NCBI RefSeq assembly: GCF_002215035.1
Contig: NZ_NKFP01000001.1
Span: forward strand, 679,501-743,500
DNA from: Leptolyngbya ohadii IS1
GTDB lineage: Bacteria > Cyanobacteriota > Cyanobacteriia > Elainellales > Elainellaceae
DNA: 64,000 bases
Direction: 5' to 3'
Shown here: piece after piece, positions 31,925-41,250 of the stretch
How positions within the stretch are numbered: position 1 is the stretch's first letter
Layout: every line of letters begins with the position of its first letter
Translations under genes and position numbers: made by a program
Notes under the pieces: generated by a model
Told to the model about the DNA's origin: nothing
The model's database searches: none
What the model saw: the letters and a program-made list of their open reading frames with translations, nothing else

Positions 31925-33340
31925 ATGGCAATTCTTTCATTTCATCCGCTAGATGGGGAATCCATAAGTCTTTCCGAACTTGCTCCATCTGACTCTGTCA
32001 GAGAGGGGCGCTCGCGAATGGTGATCATGGGCGCGGCTGGACGGGATTTTCATAACTTTAATCAGGTTTACCGGAGTGATCCAACCGTCGAAGTGGTTGC
32101 CTTTACAGCTGCCCAAATTACCGGCATTAGCAATCGCCGCTATCCCCCTTCTTTGTCCGGATCGCTGTATCCTGAGGGCATTCCGATTGTCGATGAATCC
32201 CAGCTCGAATCGCTTTGTCGATCGCATCGGGTAAACCAGGTGGTGTTTGCCTATAGTGATGTGCCCCATGCCCATGTGATGCATCTGGCTTCTAGAGCCT
32301 TGGCAACCGGGGCAGATTTTGTGCTGCTAGGACCTGAGCGCACCATGATTCAGGCGACGGTTCCCGTCATTGCAGTCTCAGCCGTGCGAACGGGATGCGG
32401 CAAGTCTCAGGTAACGCGCTGGCTGTCAAAACTGCTGCGGAAACGGGGCTTTCGCACTGCCGTAATTCGACATCCGATGCCCTATGGCGATCTGGAGCAG
32501 CAGCGAGTCCAGCGATTTGCCAGCCGTGCCGATCTGGATGCGGCGCACTGCACGATCGAAGAACGCGAGGAATATGAACCCCATCTGGCGATCGGCAATA
32601 TTGTTTATGCCGGGGTGGACTATGGGGCGATCGCAGCGCAGGCAGCATCGGAAGCTGATTTGATTTTGTGGGACGGTGGCAACAACGATTTTCCATTCCT
32701 GCGACCCGATCTGCACATTGTCCTGGTCGATCCGCTGCGTCCTGGACATGAAACCAGCCACCACCCCGGTGAGGCAGCACTGCGGATGGCGGATGGGGTT
32801 GTCGTTGCGAAGGTCAATGCGGCAGCCACGGCAGATGTGCAGCGGGTGATGGAAACGGTGCGATCGATTAATCCAAACGCAGTCCTGGTGCGCGGGGCTT
32901 CACCGATTGTTCTGGAACAGGCTGAACAGGTTAAAGGCAAGCGAGTCCTTGTCGTGGAGGATGGTCCGACGACAACGCATGGCGGAATGCCCTACGGAGC
33001 GGGATATGTGGCTGCAACCCGTGCCCAGGTAGGCGCGATCGTCGATCCCAGAGCCTTTGCCGTGCCCGAAATTGCAGAGGTCTATGCCCGCTATCCCCAC
33101 ATCAGTAAGATTCTTCCGGCAATGGGCTACTCTGCCGCTCAACTTGAGGGATTGCAGCAAACCATTAATCGGGCTGACGTGGATGCGATCGTCTCTGGAA
33201 CCCCGATCGATCTGGCAGCGTTAATTCAGGTGAACAAACCGATCCTGCGTGCCCGCTATGAGTTTGCTGAACTGGAGGAGCCAGGATTGGCGGCAGTCGT
33301 AGAGCAGTTTTTGCAGCGTCGGGGTTTGATTCGAGAATGA
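31925..33340 (+). CDS. Cyclic 2,3-diphosphoglycerate synthetase-like P-loop protein
   Basis: 471 residues, similar to COG2403 proteins (archaeal cyclic 2,3-diphosphoglycerate synthetase and bacterial relatives). After a Rossmann-like N-terminal part (MVIMGAAGRDFHNFNQVY near residue 32) comes a P-loop, AVSAVRTGCGKSQVTRWL near 149-166, then VIRHPMPYGDL, LILWDGGNNDFPFLRPDLHI, VVAKVNAA and a C-terminal LPAMGYSAAQLEGLQ...VDAIVSGTP segment. The archaeal enzyme closes an intramolecular phosphoanhydride using ATP. In bacteria the product is unknown. The 31 residues before MVIMG may be an extension or a wrong start. It is the first gene of a co-directional cluster with argF and arcC (15 bp gap), suggesting a role tied to carbamoyl phosphate. 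Confidence 0.82.
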   Translation: MAILSFHPLDGESISLSELAPSDSVREGRSRMVIMGAAGRDFHNFNQVYRSDPTVEVVAFTAAQITGISNRRYPPSLSGSLYPEGIPIVDESQLESLCRSHRVNQVVFAYSDVPHAHVMHLASRALATGADFVLLGPERTMIQATVPVIAVSAVRTGCGKSQVTRWLSKLLRKRGFRTAVIRHPMPYGDLEQQRVQRFASRADLDAAHCTIEEREEYEPHLAIGNIVYAGVDYGAIAAQAASEADLILWDGGNNDFPFLRPDLHIVLVDPLRPGHETSHHPGEAALRMADGVVVAKVNAAATADVQRVMETVRSINPNAVLVRGASPIVLEQAEQVKGKRVLVVEDGPTTTHGGMPYGAGYVAATRAQVGAIVDPRAFAVPEIAEVYARYPHISKILPAMGYSAAQLEGLQQTINRADVDAIVSGTPIDLAALIQVNKPILRARYEFAELEEPGLAAVVEQFLQRRGLIRE

Positions 33341-33355
33341 TTCAGGAGATGATTC

Positions 33356-34357
33356 ATGCCATTCAATCTTCGCAATCGCAGTTTGTTGAAAGTCGAAGAC
33401 CTTAGCCGACGGGAACTCCTGTACCTGCTGGATTTGGCGCGAGATTTGAAGCGGTCAAAATATTCTCGAACTGAACAGCAGCATTTGAAAGGAAAGACCA
33501 TTGCGCTGATCTTTGAAAAAGCCTCAACCCGGACTCGCTGCGCCTTTGAGGTTGCCTGCTTCGATCAGGGGGCAAATGTTTCCTATCTTGATCCCTCTGG
33601 TTCGCAAATTGGACACAAAGAAACGATTAAAGATACAGCTCGCGTCCTGGGTCGCCTGTACGACGGCATCGAATATCGAGGTTTTAACCAATCGATCGTC
33701 GAAGAACTGGCACGCTATGCAGGCGTTCCTGTCTACAACGGCTTAACCGATGAATCGCATCCGACTCAAATTCTGGCGGATTTCCTGACCATGCAGGAAC
33801 ATAGCGATAAACCCCTGCACGATATTTCATTCTGCTTTGTGGGCGATTGCCGATTTAATATGGCAAATTCCCTTATGATTGGCGGCTGTTTACTGGGAAT
33901 GGATGTGCGATTGGCAAGTCCCTCAACTTTCGCGCCTCATGCAGAAATGGTGACGATCGCTCAACAGCGTGCTGAAAAGTCGGGTGCAAAGCTAACCATT
34001 ACAGATGATATTCAAGCTGCGGTGAAAGGCGTGGACTACATTTACACCGATGTTTGGGTATCGATGGGAGAACCGGATGAAGTCTGGAAGGAACGCATCG
34101 GGTTACTTAAACCCTATCAGGTGAATCAAACACTCATGAACGCGACAGGGAATCCCCGCACCCAGTTTTTGCACTGCCTGCCCTCATTCCACAATACCGA
34201 AACCAAAGTCGGTAAACGGATCTTCGAGAAATACGGCATTGCAGAACTGGAAGTGACCGATGAAGTGTTTGAGTCCGAAGCCTCGATCGTATTTGACCAG
34301 GCAGAGAATCGAATGCACACCATTAAGGCTGTCTTAGTCGCAACCTTGGGCGATTGA
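33356..34357 (+). CDS. argF: Ornithine carbamoyltransferase
   Basis: Catalyses ornithine + carbamoyl phosphate to citrulline + phosphate, or the reverse in catabolic versions. 333 residues with all landmarks: carbamoyl-phosphate loop [15 protein letters not shown] near 54-68, [12 protein letters not shown] near 140, the ornithine-specific DVWVSMG near 231-237, and HCLPSFH near 271. AGGAG lies just upstream. It is followed 11 bp later by carbamate kinase, so it may work catabolically (arcB-like), feeding carbamoyl phosphate from citrulline. No arginine deiminase gene is present in the window, and it may not be the sole biosynthetic OTC of the genome. Confidence 0.93.
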
Positions 34358-34368
34358 GGAGGTAAACC

Positions 34369-35292
34369 ATGCGAGTTGTAATTGCGCTGGGGGGAAACGC
34401 TCTACTTCGTCGGGATGAACCGATGACCGCAGAACGTCAGCGACGGAATGTTCGCATTGCTGCCCAGGCTCTGGCAGAAGTTGCCCAAAAGCACCAGATT
34501 ATTATTTCCCACGGCAATGGACCGCAAGTGGGTTTATTGGCACTTCAGGCAGCCGCCTATATGCCCAGCAGTCCCTATCCTCTGGACGTACTGGGTGCTG
34601 AAACCGAGGGCATGATTGGCTATTTGCTGGAACAGGAATTGGGCAATCTTCTGCCGCCTGAGCAGCCCCTAGCAACAATTTTGACGATGGTTGAAGTCGA
34701 TGCTCAAGATCCAGCCTTTCAGCATCCCAGTAAACCGATCGGTCCTGTCTACTCGCAGGCAGAAGCCGAACAGCTTGCCGCAGAGCGAGGATGGACGATC
34801 GCCCTGGACGGCAACAAGTTCCGCCGTGTGGTTCCTTCCCCGTTGCCCAAACGCATTTTTGAACTGCGCCCGATTCGATGGCTATTAGAAAAGGGAACGA
34901 TCGTGATTTGTGCTGGAGGTGGCGGCATTCCCACAATGTTTGATGCTGCGGGTAATCTTCAGGGGGTCGAAGCGGTAATCGACAAAGATCGGGCAAGTGC
35001 TTTACTGGCGCAGGAGCTAGCAGCCGACTTTTTTATTATGGCAACCGATGTTGATGCGGTTTATCTCCATTGGGGACAGCCTAACGCAAAGGCAATTCGC
35101 TGTACTTCTCCTGAAGCAATCGCGCAGTTTGAGTTTGCAGAGGGTTCAATGGCTCCCAAGGTGGAAGCGGCGATCGAGTTTGCCTCGAAAACTGGAAAAA
35201 CGGCAGCGATTGGGGCGCTGAGCGATCTGTCCAAAATGATTGCAGGTGAAGCAGGAACCCAGGTAACGGTAGATTCTACGGCGATCGAATGA
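34369..35292 (+). CDS. arcC: Carbamate kinase
   Basis: Reversibly makes ATP from ADP and carbamoyl phosphate, releasing NH3 and CO2. 307 residues, typical length. Motifs: [12 protein letters not shown] at the N-terminus, [15 protein letters not shown] near 44, KPIGPVYS near 122, [13 protein letters not shown] near 152, [10 protein letters not shown] near 184 and [12 protein letters not shown] near 203. A strong GAGGAGG precedes the ATG. Carbamate kinase is uncommon in cyanobacteria as far as I know; linkage with OTC and the cPGS-like gene suggests substrate-level phosphorylation from citrulline or supply of carbamoyl phosphate to another reaction. Confidence 0.94.
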
Positions 35293-35359
35293 GAGTGAGG
35301 TAGTTAAGGTTTGCTGTCCCTTCAAGTCCATATCAAACAAATTGCTGAGGAGATAGATC

Positions 35360-36934
35360 ATGGAAAATTTTGATTTTGTGATTCTCGGAGCAGGGTTAGG
35401 AGGGCTGTCTGCCGCTGCCTGTCTCAGCCGTCAGGGATATCAGGTTGCAGTACTGGAAAAACATTATCTGCCGGGTGGGTGCTGCCATACCTTTGACTAT
35501 GGGGAGTATCATTTCTGTGCAGATGTTCACTACATTTCCCAATGCAGGGAAGATCAGGCGATCGGGCAATTCCTCAGATATATCGATCGGGAGGTCTCCT
35601 TTAACAGCCTTGACCCCGACTGTATCGATCGCGTGATTACACCCGAAGTTGACTTTAAGATTCCCTTAGCCTGGGATCGATTTCGCGATCGGCTACTCGC
35701 TACCTTCCCAGAAGAAGTGGTTCCAATTAACCGCTACTGTGACGAAATTCAGAGGCTCCATGAAGACATCCGTCGTTTGGGACAAGAGCTGCGGTGGTAT
35801 GACCAGAAGTGGTTAGACTGGCTGAAGTTACCCAAGTATTGGAATCTGTTCTCGAAGCGCACTTGGACTCTGCAAGATCTCTACGATGACGTGGGACTCT
35901 CGCCCAAGCTCCAGGCATTGCTGGCGGGACAGAGCGGAGATTATGCCCTGCCTCCCAATGAAATTTCCCTGATTACTCATACTGCCCTGGTCTGGGATTA
36001 CTCAGAAGGCGCATACTATCCCAAACATCACTTCAAATATTTTGTAGAGACGATCGTGGATACCATTACTGCAAATGGTGGAGTGGTTCACTACGAAACT
36101 CCAGTTGAACATCTTCAGGTTACGGATCACAAAATCGAGAATGTGATCGCAGGCGGTAAAGTGTATAAAGCCAGGAACGCCTATATCAGCGATCTTGATC
36201 CGAAATTAACCGTTCAGCTCATGCATGATTCCAGCAGCCTGAGTCGATCGGAACAGCGGCGGCTCACACAGTACGAATACTCTGCCAGTGCTTTTAATAT
36301 CTATCTGGGACTGAATCAGCAGTTCAAGCCCGAAAATTATGGGATTGGCAACTGGAACATCTGGTATTATCCCACCGGCGATCTTAATCAGGAATATCAA
36401 CAGCAGCTTCAGGGCAATCTACAGCATCCCTGGATTTTCCTCTCCTGCCCCACTATGAAATCTCAGGAAGCGGGAATGGCGCCTCCCGGTCATCATGTTC
36501 TGGAGATTGCTACCGTTTGCCCTTACGAATCGTTCAAACAGCCACATGACACCGATCCAAAGGCTTATAAAGCGAAAAAACGGCAGGTTTACCAAGAGGT
36601 GATGACCAGCGTGCGGGATCTAATTCCTGATGTGGATACCTACACCCGAATGAAGATTTACGGCACACCAACCACCAGCGAACACTATTTAGGACAGCCC
36701 CAGGGCAATATTTACGGTGCAAAACTCATCCCTCGTCAGGTTGGACTCAATCGGCTCGGATATGTCACCGAGCTTCCGAATCTGTTCTTGGTGGGTGCAA
36801 GCGCAGGCTATCCCAGTGTTCCGGGTGTGATTGGCAATGGGATGGATGTGGTCGAAATGATTACCGGAGAATCTGTTCGACATGCCAGAAAATCACCGGA
36901 GTTATCGCTTCCACTCCTGGGACGATCGGCGTAG
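35360..36934 (+). CDS. FAD-dependent oxidoreductase, RetSat/CrtISO-like
   Basis: 524 residues. N-terminal FAD/NAD(P) Rossmann motif DFVILGAGLGGLSAAACLSR, followed by EKHYLPGGCCHTF, and C-terminal FAD-binding VGASAGYPSVPGVIGNGMDV. The layout is that of phytoene-desaturase-related enzymes, closest in feel to all-trans-retinol 13,14-reductases and carotenoid isomerases. No carotenoid genes lie nearby. A GAGGAGATAGATC leader supports the start. It sits 67 bp after arcC and before the split dikinase on the same strand, so it probably serves the cluster's pathway: saturating or desaturating a hydrophobic or polyketide-like substrate. The substrate is unknown. Confidence 0.82.
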   Translation: MENFDFVILGAGLGGLSAAACLSRQGYQVAVLEKHYLPGGCCHTFDYGEYHFCADVHYISQCREDQAIGQFLRYIDREVSFNSLDPDCIDRVITPEVDFKIPLAWDRFRDRLLATFPEEVVPINRYCDEIQRLHEDIRRLGQELRWYDQKWLDWLKLPKYWNLFSKRTWTLQDLYDDVGLSPKLQALLAGQSGDYALPPNEISLITHTALVWDYSEGAYYPKHHFKYFVETIVDTITANGGVVHYETPVEHLQVTDHKIENVIAGGKVYKARNAYISDLDPKLTVQLMHDSSSLSRSEQRRLTQYEYSASAFNIYLGLNQQFKPENYGIGNWNIWYYPTGDLNQEYQQQLQGNLQHPWIFLSCPTMKSQEAGMAPPGHHVLEIATVCPYESFKQPHDTDPKAYKAKKRQVYQEVMTSVRDLIPDVDTYTRMKIYGTPTTSEHYLGQPQGNIYGAKLIPRQVGLNRLGYVTELPNLFLVGASAGYPSVPGVIGNGMDVVEMITGESVRHARKSPELSLPLLGRSA

Positions 36935-37260
36935 GAAACCCTCCTGGGCAGCATAACGCTTGATGCGGCTGCCCTAGTCTCGTTGTTGGCGACGACACCA
37001 CCGTTTATCCAGTCGAGGCTTCTGCCCTCCAGTCGAGTCCCTGGTTCTGACAGTTTCCTTGAAACTCGCTCATTCATAAATATTTCCTGAGGAATGTTTA
37101 AGTTCTGGTGCATTTTCTTGTTTTGGTGCATTTTCTTGTTTAAAGAATGGTTAACTTTAGGTTAAACATCTGGAAATTTTGTAGAAGCTGGAGAAGCTCA
37201 GATAAAGCAATCTCAGGCAGCTGAGTAACTTTTACAACTTCTCTTAATAGCTTCATTGAT
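36935..37260. other. Leader region of the split dikinase genes
   Basis: 326 bp without a supportable gene. It contains a direct doublet of a GGTGCATTTTCTTGTTTT-like unit near 37107-37140 and an AT-rich TTAACTTTAGGTTAAAC dyad-like stretch at 37151-37167. An internal promoter for the dikinase/MFS genes is likely here, as this is the only long gap in the cluster. Confidence 0.5.
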
Positions 37261-38955
37261 ATGTCTGTGTACGTAGAAGAATTTGCACCTCCAGGACCTG
37301 GCTCCTGGATATTAGAAACAACCCATTGGTCACGCCCGATGACCCGCTATGGAATGAATATCTTTCCTTCAGCATTCAAGCGAGGGTTTCAAGAAGGCAC
37401 TGCCCGATATGGGATGATGCTGGACTACATCGAATATGCCGCAGTAAACGGTTTTGCCTACAACTGCGCTCACGTCGTCGGGGCACCGCCAGAAGCCACA
37501 GCACCGCCCCCCAAGTGGATCTTTAAGCTGCTGACTCGGTTTCATCCCCAGGTACGTCAGCGCGTTCAAGCTGCTAAAGCCGCATTTGAGCAAAAGCTGT
37601 GGCGGGCAGACCTGAAGCAATGGGATGAAAGCTGGAAGCCTGCTCTGGCACGCACCTATCAAGCCCTGCAAAGCGTTGATCCAACCCAGTTGTCTCTGGA
37701 GGACTTAATTGCCCACCTGAATGCCTGTCGAGATGCACTGGCAGAGGCTATTTATTATCATCATCGGCTGAATCCCTGTGCGCTGGTGCCGCTGGGCGAT
37801 TTCCTGGTGCAGGCTCAGGGCTGGACTGGACTGGAACCGCAGATCCTATTGCAATTGCTGCAAGGGGCAACCCCCGTATCGATCGGAGCGATCGGCGAAA
37901 TTCAACAGCTCGCGCAAACTATTCATCAGCATCCCGAAGCCGCCTCACTCTTAAACAGTCAGCAGCCTGCCGCCGAGATTTTGCAGCAGATCCAGGCAAT
38001 ACCGGGTGCAGTGGGTGAAGCCATGAACGCCTATCTCAACGTGGTCGGGCTTCGCGTTTTAACCGGGTATGACGTGGGGGATTTGTATGCCCTCGATACC
38101 CCCGAACTGCTCGTAGAGACGATTCGTGCAGCCCTCGATACCCCTGTGCATCAGAGCGTCACAGACCGCTTGGCAGAGCAAACCGAAAAGGTGCGATCGG
38201 CAGTCCCAGAGGAACATCGGGCTGAATTTGATGCGCTGCTGGCAGAGGCTCGTTTAACCTATCGCATTCGGGATGAGCGGGGCTATCTCAACGATGCCTG
38301 GGCAACCGGAATTGCCAGACGAGCCCTCTTAGCAGCAGGCGATCGGCTCACCGCAGCAGGCAAACTCGAAAAGCCGGAACATGCCGTTGAGCTGACCCAC
38401 GACGAACTAATTGCCCTGCTCCAGGGACAGCCCGGACCTTCTGCCCACGAACTCGCCGAATATTTCCATTACCGCACCAGCAAAACGATCGCCGATGCCC
38501 CTGTTCACCTCGGTACACCGCCTGGCTCACCGCCCCCAGACGATTGGCTGCCGCCTGCTTCCGCTCGTATGAGTCGCGCGATGAATGTTGTGCTGGGACA
38601 TCTGTTTGCCGCACCGGGTAAGCAAATCGAGCCGAAAACTATTCAGGGGGTTCCTGCGAGTCCGGGAGAGTATGAGGGCATCGCCAGACTGGTGCTGGAT
38701 CTGGAGGATATGGCGCAGGTGAAGGAAGGCGATATTCTGGTCGCCCGGATGACGGCTCCTTCCTACAATGCGCTGCTGCCGATGCTGGGCGGCATTGTCA
38801 CCGATCGCGGTGGGCTACTTTCCCATGCGGCGATCGTGGCTCGTGAGTATGGTTTACCCGCCGTGGTGGGCTGTATGGAAGCGACTCAGGCGATTCCCAA
38901 TGGCAGTCGTATTCGGGTCAATGGAACTTCTGGAGAGGTCAAGATTCTGGCATGA
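37261..38955 (+). CDS. PEP-utilising dikinase subunit: acceptor-type domain plus phosphohistidine domain
   Basis: 564 residues. The C-terminal 100 residues form a PEP-utilising-enzyme mobile domain: GVPASPGEYEGIARLVLD, GDILVARMTAPSYNALLPML and the phosphohistidine motif GGLLSHAAIVAREYGLPAVV. The first ~450 residues, beginning near GPGSWILETTHWSRPMTRY, resemble the middle substrate-binding region of rifampin-phosphotransferase-like and PEP-synthase-like proteins. The N-terminal ATP-grasp domain normally found in these enzymes is missing here and is encoded by the next, overlapping gene. The pair should transfer the beta-phosphate of ATP through His to an unknown acceptor. Strand, spacing and content tie it to the cPGS-like/arcC cluster. 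Confidence 0.83.
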   Translation: MSVYVEEFAPPGPGSWILETTHWSRPMTRYGMNIFPSAFKRGFQEGTARYGMMLDYIEYAAVNGFAYNCAHVVGAPPEATAPPPKWIFKLLTRFHPQVRQRVQAAKAAFEQKLWRADLKQWDESWKPALARTYQALQSVDPTQLSLEDLIAHLNACRDALAEAIYYHHRLNPCALVPLGDFLVQAQGWTGLEPQILLQLLQGATPVSIGAIGEIQQLAQTIHQHPEAASLLNSQQPAAEILQQIQAIPGAVGEAMNAYLNVVGLRVLTGYDVGDLYALDTPELLVETIRAALDTPVHQSVTDRLAEQTEKVRSAVPEEHRAEFDALLAEARLTYRIRDERGYLNDAWATGIARRALLAAGDRLTAAGKLEKPEHAVELTHDELIALLQGQPGPSAHELAEYFHYRTSKTIADAPVHLGTPPGSPPPDDWLPPASARMSRAMNVVLGHLFAAPGKQIEPKTIQGVPASPGEYEGIARLVLDLEDMAQVKEGDILVARMTAPSYNALLPMLGGIVTDRGGLLSHAAIVAREYGLPAVVGCMEATQAIPNGSRIRVNGTSGEVKILA

Positions 38956-39797
38956 CCCCAATCAACTTACTGATGCATCCCCTTAACTTAACCGAAGCGT
39001 TGGATGAGGCAGTCTGCGGTGGCAAAGCCGTGCAGCTAGGCGCAGCGATCCGGGCAGGACTTCCTGTGCCGTCGGGATTTGTGCTGACCGCTCCTCTGGT
39101 CAATGCGATTGCCGCTCAGGAGGCAGAGCCGATCGATCGGGCTGTGCAGGCTTTTACTCAGCTCCAGGGCGCGGTGGCGGTGCGATCGTCCGCAGTCGGA
39201 GAAGATTCCAGTCAGGCAAGTTTTGCGGGTCAACACCTCACCTGCCTGAATATTTGCTCGCCCAGCGGACTGATCGAAGCCGTACAGCAGGTCTGGCAGT
39301 CGGGTCAAAGTGCGGCTGCCCAAAGCTATCGTCAGCGGTTAGGCATTACCCAGGTGCCTGAGGTGGCAGTGGTGGTGCAGCGTTTCATTCCGGCAACGCA
39401 ATCGGGAGTGCTGTTCACCCGTAATCCGATCAGCGGTAAAGACGAACGGGTAATAGAAGCGTCCTGGGGATTGGGAGAAGCGATCGTGTCTGGTTTCGTG
39501 ACGCCGGACTGCTATCGGCTTCAGCGGCAGGGTCAGGTGATAGAACAAACCCCTGGTGTCAAAGACATCGCCATTGTCCCGATCGCCGAGGGGCAAACGC
39601 AGCAGGTTGCTGTAGAACCGCATCGTGTCAGGGCTTTGTGCTTAGAGGATTGGCATCTGGAGCAGTTAAACTGCCTGGCAACCCTGTGCGAGCAGCACTT
39701 TCAGCAGCCTCTGGATCTGGAATGGTGCTTTGAGGGTTCGACGCTGTATTTACTTCAGTGCCGCGCTATTACTCGCATTGCATCGCATCCTGTTTAA
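38952..39797 (+). CDS. Split dikinase subunit: ATP-grasp (PPDK N-terminal) domain
   Basis: 281 residues equal to the pyruvate-phosphate-dikinase / PEP-synthase ATP-binding domain alone. Motifs: GGKAVQLGAAIRAGLPVPSG near the N-terminus, VAVRSSAVGEDSSQASFAGQ near 75-95, VVVQRFIPATQSGVLFTRNP, EASWGLGEAIVSGFVTPD and a final LDLEWCFEGSTLYLLQCRAI. It has no phosphohistidine domain of its own. An ATGA overlap of 4 bp with the preceding gene strongly suggests a 1:1 complex. In single-chain relatives this domain comes first; here the gene order is reversed, so it is not a simple split of a one-gene ancestor by a stop codon. Confidence 0.88.
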   Translation: MTPINLLMHPLNLTEALDEAVCGGKAVQLGAAIRAGLPVPSGFVLTAPLVNAIAAQEAEPIDRAVQAFTQLQGAVAVRSSAVGEDSSQASFAGQHLTCLNICSPSGLIEAVQQVWQSGQSAAAQSYRQRLGITQVPEVAVVVQRFIPATQSGVLFTRNPISGKDERVIEASWGLGEAIVSGFVTPDCYRLQRQGQVIEQTPGVKDIAIVPIAEGQTQQVAVEPHRVRALCLEDWHLEQLNCLATLCEQHFQQPLDLEWCFEGSTLYLLQCRAITRIASHPV

Positions 39798-39888
39798 GCC
39801 TTTGCCTGTCTATTTGCCTGTCTAATTATCTAAGCCTCGATTTTATCTAAGCCGCGATTGCTTAAGCCTCTGCTTGAGCCTAGATCTC

Positions 39889-41250
39889 ATGAACGATTCG
39901 ACCTCCCAATCGGTTTGGCGCGATCGTGCCTTGCTGATAGCGATCATGCTCAGTTCGATGCTGGCACCGCTCAACTCAACCATGATTGCGGTTGCCCTGC
40001 CGCGCCTGATTACTGAGTTTCAGACCGATGTTGCCCATGCAAGCTGGCTGGTGACAAGCTATTTGATTGCGATGGCAACCTTGCAGCCGATCGCTGGAAA
40101 ACTGGGCGATCGTTGGGGGCGGCGTTCTCTGATTCTGGGCGGGTTAGTCTGCTTTGGCGTGGCTTCCTTAGCGGCAACATGGGCACCCAATTTGTCTTTG
40201 CTGATTGGATTTCGGCTGCTGCAAGCGGTTTCTGGGGCGATCGCCATTCCGAATGGGATTGCTTTAGTCCGAGAAGCCGTGCCTGACCATCAGCGGGCAA
40301 CCCAGTTTGGGTTAGTGAGCAGTGCGACCTCCTTAGCAGCGGCGATCGGTCCTCCCATTGGTGGGGTGTTAACCAGTTTGGCAGGGTGGCGAGCCATCTT
40401 TTTTGTGAATGTGCTGCTGATTCTGCCTGCTTTGCTGCTGGGCGCATGGGCAATTCCTCGACGCAGTCGGAAGGCAGCCTCTCGTCCGTTTGATTGGGGC
40501 GGATCGCTCTTGCTGGCGGCGGTGCTGGCAAGCCTGGCAGGGCTGTTGTCCCAAATGCGGCAGGGAGGACTGGCAATTTCTCCCGGACTGGCTGTGGGAA
40601 GTGTGGTGGCTCTGGGGGTCGCATTCTTTGCCTACGAAGCGCGGCATCCTGACCCGATTATTCAACTCCGCTTTTTTCGTAAACGTGCCTTTGCTGCGGC
40701 CAATGGGGCGATCGCGCTCAGTAACTTAGCCATGTATGTCACCCTGCTCAGCTTGCCTATCCTGCTGTCAGAGCGGGCGGGCTGGACGGACTCGCAAATT
40801 GGGTTTGTCCTTGCCGCCTTTTCTGGATTAATGATTATTGGCTCTCCCTTAGGCGGACGCTGGGCAGATCGCTGGGGTCGTCGCCTGCCAACGGTCATAG
40901 GATTAACCCTATTCACACTGGGGTTACTGCCGCTGGTGATTCGGGCAGAGACGGTTCCACTCCTGTTGCTATTGCCTGGACTGGCGATCGCTGGCAGCGG
41001 GATGGGAGCTTCGATGGCAGGGCTACAAACGTCTGCGCTGGAATCTTTGAAGCCTGAAGAAGCCGGAGTCGCAGCAGGAGTATTTTCAACCAGTCGCTAT
41101 CTGGGCAGTATTGTGGGTTCCAGTATTCTGGCAGGGATACTCAGTTCCAGCGGTAACTTTCATCTGGTGTTTTGGATGGTGGGCATTACCGCTTTCCTTT
41201 CAGTTCTGGTCAGTCTGGGTTTGCGCGATCGTCCTTTGAGCGAGGCGTAG
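39889..41250 (+). CDS. MFS transporter, DHA2 (EmrB/QacA-like) drug/metabolite exporter
   Basis: 453 residues with about 14 membrane helices. Signatures: PLNSTMIAVALPRLITEF in helix 1, the loop 2-3 motif GKLGDRWGRRSLILGG, motif C AIGPPIGGVLTSLAGWR, and a second RWGRRLPT repeat in the C-terminal half. ATG at 39889 is chosen over a TTG five codons upstream. It follows the split dikinase by 91 bp on the same strand. The simplest reading is a proton-driven exporter for the product of the preceding genes. The gap before it carries repeated TAAGCC-containing short units. Confidence 0.9.
   Translation: MNDSTSQSVWRDRALLIAIMLSSMLAPLNSTMIAVALPRLITEFQTDVAHASWLVTSYLIAMATLQPIAGKLGDRWGRRSLILGGLVCFGVASLAATWAPNLSLLIGFRLLQAVSGAIAIPNGIALVREAVPDHQRATQFGLVSSATSLAAAIGPPIGGVLTSLAGWRAIFFVNVLLILPALLLGAWAIPRRSRKAASRPFDWGGSLLLAAVLASLAGLLSQMRQGGLAISPGLAVGSVVALGVAFFAYEARHPDPIIQLRFFRKRAFAAANGAIALSNLAMYVTLLSLPILLSERAGWTDSQIGFVLAAFSGLMIIGSPLGGRWADRWGRRLPTVIGLTLFTLGLLPLVIRAETVPLLLLLPGLAIAGSGMGASMAGLQTSALESLKPEEAGVAAGVFSTSRYLGSIVGSSILAGILSSSGNFHLVFWMVGITAFLSVLVSLGLRDRPLSEA

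What the first reader, a model, noticed from the sequence alone, without database searches (positions are those of the whole stretch)
31925..41250. Candidate undescribed pathway: cPGS-like protein, OTC, carbamate kinase, RetSat-like flavoprotein, split dikinase and exporter
Seven co-directional genes with short gaps (15, 11, 67, 326, -4, 91 bp) combine three phosphoryl-transfer enzymes that do not normally occur together: a cyclic-2,3-diphosphoglycerate-synthetase-like P-loop protein, carbamate kinase with OTC, and an ATP/phosphohistidine dikinase. A flavoprotein and a DHA2-type exporter follow. I know of no described cyanobacterial pathway with this set. It could make and export a phosphorylated or carbamoylated metabolite, or recycle carbamoyl phosphate energy for such a synthesis. 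Co-function is inference from gene order; the enzyme families are clear from motifs.
Basis: partly seen in the sequence, partly recalled or inferred. Interest (0 to 1): 0.85.

Follow-up and report, generated by a model that had tools for sequence, protein, structure and literature searches.

The report
Arginine-fermentation operon beside unrelated genes
The first three of the seven genes very probably form a recently described pathway that breaks arginine down to make ATP, and the other four are separate genes that lie next to it, so this is a cyanobacterial example of known biochemistry rather than a new pathway.

Summary

(1) The cPGS-like gene (31925-33340), OTC and carbamate kinase (to 35292) are a real module. 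Carbamate kinase occurs in 9 of 290 cyanobacterial genomes searched; 8 of the 9 also carry the cPGS-like gene, always within 3 kb. The ninth has antiporter-ADI-OTC-CK. Arginine deiminase was not detected in the eight, so the cPGS-like protein stands in for it. A published pathway has exactly this exchange: arginine synthetase (ArcE) replaces arginine deiminase and, with OTC and carbamate kinase, gives two ATP per arginine (PMC13260591). I infer that the cPGS-like protein is ArcE; I could not compare it with TK2200, the characterised enzyme.

(2) The flavoprotein occurs in 55 of 290 cyanobacteria; none of 20 neighbourhoods examined holds the module.

(3) The split dikinase and exporter form their own triad in two other cyanobacteria; a Streptomyces plasmid has the dikinase pair behind a TetR gene. 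It resembles phenylphosphate synthase or rifampin phosphotransferase.

The 'cPGS' label misleads: the fold matches, the 2,3-DPG-binding residues do not.

The parts
31925..33340 (+). cPGS-like P-loop protein, 471 aa; proposed arginine synthetase (ArcE)
   Evidence: Linked to carbamate kinase and/or OTC in many genomes; takes the place of ADI; cPGS fold. ArcE identity inferred.
33356..34357 (+). Ornithine carbamoyltransferase, extra catabolic-type copy (arcB)
   Evidence: TIGR00658 over cut-off, PRK04284 best; STRTR, DVWVSMG and HCLP motifs; third transcarbamylase of the genome; 75% identical to arcB of the G197 ADI operon
34369..35292 (+). Carbamate kinase (arcC)
   Evidence: TIGR00746 400 bits over 358; the only one in the genome; 60% identical to arcC of the G197 ADI operon
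35360..36934 (+). FAD oxidoreductase of the carotenoid isomerase/phytoene desaturase superfamily; independent neighbour
   Evidence: in 55 of 290 cyanobacteria, unlinked in 20 contexts
37261..38955 (+). Split dikinase, acceptor part plus phosphohistidine domain (His522)
   Evidence: PF00391; GGLLSHAAIV motif; full-length orthologues in G035 and G084
38952..39797 (+). Split dikinase, ATP-grasp part
   Evidence: PF01326 215 bits; motifs; 53% identical to the partner gene on a Streptomyces plasmid
39874..41250 (+). DHA2-type efflux MFS transporter (start TTG 39874 or ATG 39889)
   Evidence: TIGR00711 over cut-off; 87-90% identical third gene of the triad in G035 and G084

Best explanation
The region holds two unrelated modules with an independent flavoprotein between them. 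Module 1 (31925-35292) is an arginine synthetase pathway operon, arcE-arcB-arcC. The cPGS-like P-loop protein would convert arginine, ADP and phosphate to citrulline, ammonia and ATP; the extra catabolic-type OTC would split citrulline with phosphate into ornithine and carbamoyl phosphate; carbamate kinase would use carbamoyl phosphate to make a second ATP. Module 2 (37261-41250) is a split ATP/phosphohistidine dikinase that would phosphorylate a small acceptor, with a DHA2 efflux pump beside it; detoxification or resistance is my guess. Shown here: gene families, linkage, exchange with ADI, fold, conserved motifs. Inferred: the ArcE identity, the direction of catalysis, the operon status (no transcript data), and the role of module 2.
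For: Carbamate kinase and the cPGS-like gene co-occur in 8 of 290 cyanobacteria (9 with CK, 21 with the cPGS-like gene), 30-2808 bp apart. The ninth CK genome has antiporter-ADI-OTC-CK; window OTC and CK are 75% and 60% identical to its genes. ADI not detected in the eight. Of the 80 best of 586 relatives, 29 have CK or OTC in the fetched stretch, and in L017 and L057 ornithine-degradation genes as well. [quoted passage not shown] Module 2: triad conserved in G035 and G084 without genes 1-4; dikinase pair with a TetR gene on a Streptomyces plasmid.
Against: TK2200 itself was not compared. 12 of the 20 other cyanobacteria with the cPGS-like gene showed no carbamate kinase and 51 of 80 wider loci show neither CK nor OTC, so the protein also works without them (or the contigs are short). 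Four cyanobacteria without CK carry both ADI and the cPGS-like gene. The window's genome lacks a match to the relatives' antiporter. The 67-bp gap leaves room for co-transcription with the flavoprotein, which is enriched in genomes with the cPGS-like gene (p 0.005).
Confidence: 0.8

Rival explanations
1. The cPGS-like protein is not ArcE but another, uncharacterised P-loop enzyme of arginine, ornithine or carbamoyl-phosphate metabolism; citrulline for OTC is imported or made otherwise.
For: No direct comparison with TK2200; related operons carry a basic amino-acid antiporter (388 bits to the arginine/agmatine antiporter model, cut-off 574) that could import citrulline; in 10 of 79 loci, all annotated or listed as Chloroflexota-type MAGs, an arginyl-tRNA-synthetase-like gene precedes it instead (gene named by eye).
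Against: Mutual exclusion with ADI among CK-bearing cyanobacteria is what is reported for ArcE (PMC13260591).
Confidence: 0.13
2. All seven genes form one undescribed pathway.
For: Same strand, short gaps except 326 bp; the flavoprotein is enriched in genomes with the cPGS-like gene (9 of 20 against 45 of 269, p 0.005) and lies 11-13 kb away on the same contig in G007 and G262.
Against: Flavoprotein unlinked in 20 contexts; dikinase triad separate in both other genomes that have it, neither of which carries the cPGS-like gene or the flavoprotein.
Confidence: 0.04
3. The first gene is a true cyclic-2,3-diphosphoglycerate synthetase.
For: Closest solved fold (Foldseek 1.2e-16; VIA Z 21.6, rmsd 12.9 over 379 residues) and weak sequence homology (1.6e-10). 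A haloarchaeal relative is annotated so.
Against: cPGS Lys145 and Arg146, which bind 2,3-DPG (PMC10690619), fall in the P-loop register on Thr156 and Gly157, invariant in 47 of 47 aligned relatives. cDPG is reported only from hyperthermophilic methanogens (abstract of PMC10690619 as listed). The neighbours are arginine genes.
Confidence: 0.02

Closest known systems
Arginine synthetase pathway (ArcE-ArcB-ArcC) of Thermococcus kodakarensis (PMC13260591, read in part; the 2024 original is not held)
   Same: OTC and carbamate kinase; a third protein in place of arginine deiminase; the same complementarity with ADI among carbamate-kinase genomes
   Different: Here the three genes are adjacent and in a cyanobacterium (in T. 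kodakarensis they are TK2200, TK0871, TK2158); sequence relation to TK2200 not tested
Arginine deiminase (arcDABC) pathway
   Same: Homologous OTC and carbamate kinase, and in relatives the same antiporter (75%, 60%, 76% to the G197 operon)
   Different: No arginine deiminase detected in this genome; the cPGS-like gene is there instead
Cyclic-2,3-diphosphoglycerate synthetase (M. fervidus)
   Same: Fold and P-loop
   Different: 2,3-DPG-binding Lys-Arg replaced by invariant Thr-Gly; arginine-gene context
Phenylphosphate/phenylphosphoamidate synthase alpha and beta (PMC7500099, passages) and rifampin phosphotransferase (PDB 5hv1, 5fbs; enzyme name recalled, the PDB table calls them phosphoenolpyruvate synthase)
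   Same: ATP-grasp part and phosphohistidine part; in phenylphosphate synthase on separate subunits with a conserved catalytic His
   Different: Acceptor unknown; paired with an efflux pump; outside the mobile domain only distant similarity to fused enzymes (28-35% over 216-369 residues)

Membership tests
Arginine synthetase pathway | Arginine synthetase homologous to TK2200 | not testable with these tools
Arginine synthetase pathway | OTC (ArcB) present | tested here: met
   TIGR00658 418 bits over 281
Arginine synthetase pathway | Carbamate kinase (ArcC) present | tested here: met
   TIGR00746 400 bits over 358
Arginine synthetase pathway | Arginine deiminase absent and complementary among carbamate-kinase genomes | tested here: met
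   0 of the 8 cyanobacteria with CK and the cPGS-like gene show PF02274; the 1 with CK alone has ADI next to it
Arginine synthetase pathway | ATP formed from arginine, ADP and phosphate | not testable with these tools
   Needs an enzyme assay
Arginine deiminase pathway | Arginine deiminase gene in cluster or genome | tested here: not met
   No PF02274 match in G000
Cyclic-2,3-DPG synthetase | Overall fold | tested here: met
   VIA Z 21.6 to 8oru, rmsd 12.9, 379 residues
Cyclic-2,3-DPG synthetase | 2,3-DPG-binding Lys145-Arg146 in the P-loop | tested here: not met
   Thr156-Gly157, invariant in 47 rows; the register rests on the shared GK[ST], as this stretch scores only 4.9 and -0.5 bits
Split ATP/phosphohistidine dikinase | ATP-grasp domain and catalytic His on two proteins | tested here: met
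   PF01326 and PF00391 on separate genes, His522 and ATP-grasp motifs present
Phenylphosphate synthase or rifampin phosphotransferase | Known acceptor (phenol, aniline or rifampin) | not testable with these tools
   Needs an enzyme assay

The most novel reading that the evidence does not exclude
The cPGS-like family is not the Thermococcus type of arginine synthetase but a third, undescribed way to start arginine or ornithine breakdown in place of arginine deiminase, with its own ATP-linked chemistry, spread over bacteria and archaea under the wrong name.
Probability: 0.1. Interest if true: 0.75.

Novelty: new member of a known kind. Interest (0 to 1): 0.38.

Why it matters
If the cPGS-like gene is arginine synthetase, some cyanobacteria carry a compact operon that yields two ATP per arginine. 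Many cyanobacteria store arginine in cyanophycin (recalled), so this would be a testable energy source in dark, anoxic mats. It would also correct a misleading public label, 'cyclic 2,3-diphosphoglycerate synthase' (seen), on a family with at least 586 relatives in one capped collection scan. The split dikinase with efflux pump is a separate small lead for a phosphorylating detoxification system.

Tried and rejected
One seven-gene pathway: rejected on linkage.

Cyclic-2,3-DPG synthesis: rejected on active-site residues and context.

Putrescine carbamoyltransferase instead of OTC: TIGR04384 282 bits, cut-off 500; the SMG motif is intact. Agmatine deiminase (PF04371) was not detected in this genome.

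Universal stress genes as constant partners of the cPGS-like gene: found in 8 of 24 cyanobacterial contexts, but also in 4 of 20 flavoprotein contexts, and in 1 of 80 of the wider set, so not shown.

Promoter and terminator scan: no more sites than in shuffled sequence (1 against 6.9; 9 against 10.1).

Low-ranking fold matches (DUF1611 proteins, dethiobiotin synthetase) suggested carbamate chemistry; not pursued once the ArcE paper was found.

A viral-contig scan with the cPGS-like profile found no relative.

Literature: one search found 0 papers that hold two of 'COG2403', 'carbamate kinase', 'predicted GTPase', 'diphosphoglycerate synthetase'. One search also gave 0, but its phrase with '2 3-' probably cannot match '2,3-', so it counts for little. 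Of 254 papers only 12 are listed, none with a diphosphoglycerate term. One search lists 15 of 227 papers; the only one with 'arginine synthetase' is PMC13260591. I therefore do not claim that cyanobacterial arcE is unpublished.
Full report
Observation. Seven co-directional ORFs lie at 31925-41250. They encode a 471-aa P-loop protein with no family above cut-off, an OTC, a carbamate kinase (CK), an FAD oxidoreductase, a protein ending in a phosphohistidine mobile domain, an ATP-grasp protein, and a DHA2 exporter. Gaps are 15, 11, 67, 326, -4 and 76 bp (91 bp from the ATG of the exporter). Two ABC-transporter ORFs precede the set; an S41 peptidase on the other strand follows.

Genes 1-3 belong together. 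In 290 cyanobacterial genomes of at least 90% completeness (drawn from a larger group), the cPGS-like gene occurs in 21 (E<=1e-60) and CK in 9 (E<=1e-50, 8 of them over the curated cut-off). Eight genomes have both, always on one contig and 30-2808 bp apart. Fisher p is 1.6e-9, and 1.9e-8 without the window's own genome; kinship is not corrected for. Arrangements: cPGS-like-OTC-CK (window); cPGS-like-antiporter-OTC-CK (G007, G018, G028; also G022, less complete and outside the 290, with interrupted antiporter frames; the G018 antiporter match holds one stop codon); cPGS-like-CK (G262, G179, G249, G220). Of the 80 best, 24 have CK and 13 OTC in the fetched stretch, 29 at least one, in Proteobacteria, Acidobacteria, Caldiserica, an archaeon and others. 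L016 among them is the same contig as G007's. 51 of 80 show neither; many of those contigs are short.

The cPGS-like gene takes the place of arginine deiminase. The only genome of the 290 with CK but no cPGS-like match, G197, has antiporter-ADI-OTC-CK; its ADI passes arcA (500 bits over 489), and its antiporter reading frame is broken in two. Window OTC and CK are 75% and 60% identical to that operon's genes, and the antiporter of G007 is 76% identical to its antiporter over 293 residues. ADI (PF02274) was searched in 22 genomes and found in 5: G024, G163, G203 and G292 strongly, G284 barely (23.1 bits, cut-off 22.8). None of these 5 is among the eight with CK and the cPGS-like gene. So among the CK-bearing genomes the two genes exclude each other, 8 to 1, whereas four cyanobacteria without CK carry both.

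Further context. In the gammaproteobacterial locus L017 the cPGS-like gene lies beside OraE, OrtB and Ord (NCBIfam over cut-off), an ornithine-racemase-like gene (414 bits, cut-off 480), OraS (PF16552), CK and OTC. In L057 (Symbiobacterium) it follows an oraE-like gene, a MutL-type gene (PF13941), an orr-like gene and OTC, with a second copy further on. In L050 and L068 it overlaps OTC by one base. On a haloarchaeal plasmid it diverges from arcC. In one cyanobacterium (G017) it neighbours an AIR-synthase-type gene (HypE by eye), HypD, a dihydroorotate-dehydrogenase-type gene and pyruvate:ferredoxin oxidoreductase.

Match with a published pathway. PMC13260591 (abstract, Introduction, sections 2.5 and 4.5, and passages read) states that arginine synthetase (ArcE, TK2200) replaces ADI in T. 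kodakarensis and makes ATP while arginine is deiminated; that with OTC and CK the pathway yields two ATP per arginine; that ArcE is widespread in archaea and bacteria; [quoted passage not shown] The pattern above is the same and was obtained before the paper turned up. The original 2024 paper is not held, and TK2200's sequence could not be reached, so ArcE identity is an inference. The name arcE is also used for an exchanger (PMC5300872, search listing only).

Structure. The model (pLDDT 91, pTM 0.89; 47-row alignment) matches cPGS best (Foldseek 1.2e-16; VIA Z 21.6, rmsd 12.9 over 379 residues), then LpxK (Z 19.1, rmsd 3.3 over 281). The large rmsd with cPGS may reflect domain movement. In cPGS, Lys145 and Arg146 of the P-loop hold 2,3-DPG (PMC10690619, passages). 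The aligned positions here are Thr156 and Gly157, invariant in 47 of 47 rows; WDGGNND and DGPT.TH are invariant too. The register rests on the shared GK[ST], since that stretch scores only 4.9 and -0.5 bits. So this is a cPGS-fold enzyme with, most likely, another substrate.

Own genome. It has three OTCace-domain genes, so the cluster OTC is additional to two others on contig C6; one CK; no detected agmatine deiminase; no match to the relatives' antiporter at 1e-20; and a gene 74% identical to a 715-aa protein of G220 that I take to be an arginine dihydrolase (label recalled, PF19420 match of the G220 gene). Schriek et al. (PMC2242806, passages) found carbamate kinase in 1 of 24 cyanobacteria, with its transcript raised on arginine.

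Flavoprotein. In 55 of 290 genomes at E<=1e-110, one match each. For 20 of the 54 other carriers I took neighbourhoods of 8-20 kb: none holds the cPGS-like gene or CK, one holds an OTC-family gene, and no neighbour recurs in more than 3. It is enriched in genomes with the cPGS-like gene (9 of 20 against 45 of 269 without the own genome, p 0.005) and lies 11-13 kb away on the same contig in G007 and G262. A loose functional tie is not excluded.

Split dikinase. Only G035 and G084 of 290 show full-length orthologues (83% and 79%; at most four candidates per genome were scored). In both, the two halves and the exporter stand together and none of the first four genes is in the fetched 18-20 kb. 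In L127 (G084) transposase-like ORFs precede it (by eye). A Streptomyces plasmid, the 1 of 234 matching plasmid records with a match over 80% or more of the query, has a TetR gene and both halves (44% and 53%) with the same 4-bp overlap and no annotated exporter in the stretch. His522 and the ATP-grasp motifs are intact. Separate alpha and beta subunits of this kind are known from phenylphosphate and phenylphosphoamidate synthases (PMC7500099, passages). A phosphorylating detoxification enzyme with its pump is my best guess, not shown.

Verdict. The first three genes are very probably a new cyanobacterial instance of a known pathway; the other genes are neighbours. Interest is moderate, because the ArcE assignment gives a simple test of arginine (cyanophycin) fermentation in cyanobacteria.

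Noticed in passing
L057:6686-11398 (Symbiobacterium MAG): Two copies of the cPGS-like gene (52% and 57% identical to the window's) in one ornithine-degradation cluster, separated by one gene.
   Followed up: partly
L136:305-8843 (G017): cPGS-like gene beside HypD, an AIR-synthase-type (HypE-like) gene and pyruvate:ferredoxin oxidoreductase. Carbamoyl phosphate from the ArcE pathway feeds hydrogenase maturation in T. kodakarensis (PMC13260591).
   Followed up: partly
L132:6743-10262 and L134:7382-7684: Apparently decaying arc clusters: one short ORF with pieces of both OTC and CK in G022, and a 100-aa CK remnant in G024.
   Followed up: no
L193:7610-14686 (G197): The complete ADI operon of this cyanobacterium is flanked on both sides by transposase-like ORFs (by eye), and its antiporter frame is broken in two.
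   Followed up: no
L047, L051, L052, L055 and six more loci: In 10 of 79 wider loci an arginyl-tRNA-synthetase-like gene (named by eye) directly precedes the cPGS-like gene.
   Followed up: no
window:35360-36934: The flavoprotein family is well conserved (68-79% identity in full-length matches), patchy (55 of 290 cyanobacteria) and without a fixed neighbour, yet enriched in genomes with the cPGS-like gene.
   Followed up: partly
window:24023-31709: TonB-dependent receptor, periplasmic binding protein (PF01497), DUF1636 protein and two ABC transporter ORFs upstream; looks like a metal or siderophore island.
   Followed up: no
L183:1821-9584 (Salinirubellus plasmid): Four universal stress protein genes around the divergent arcC and cPGS-like pair.
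   Followed up: partly
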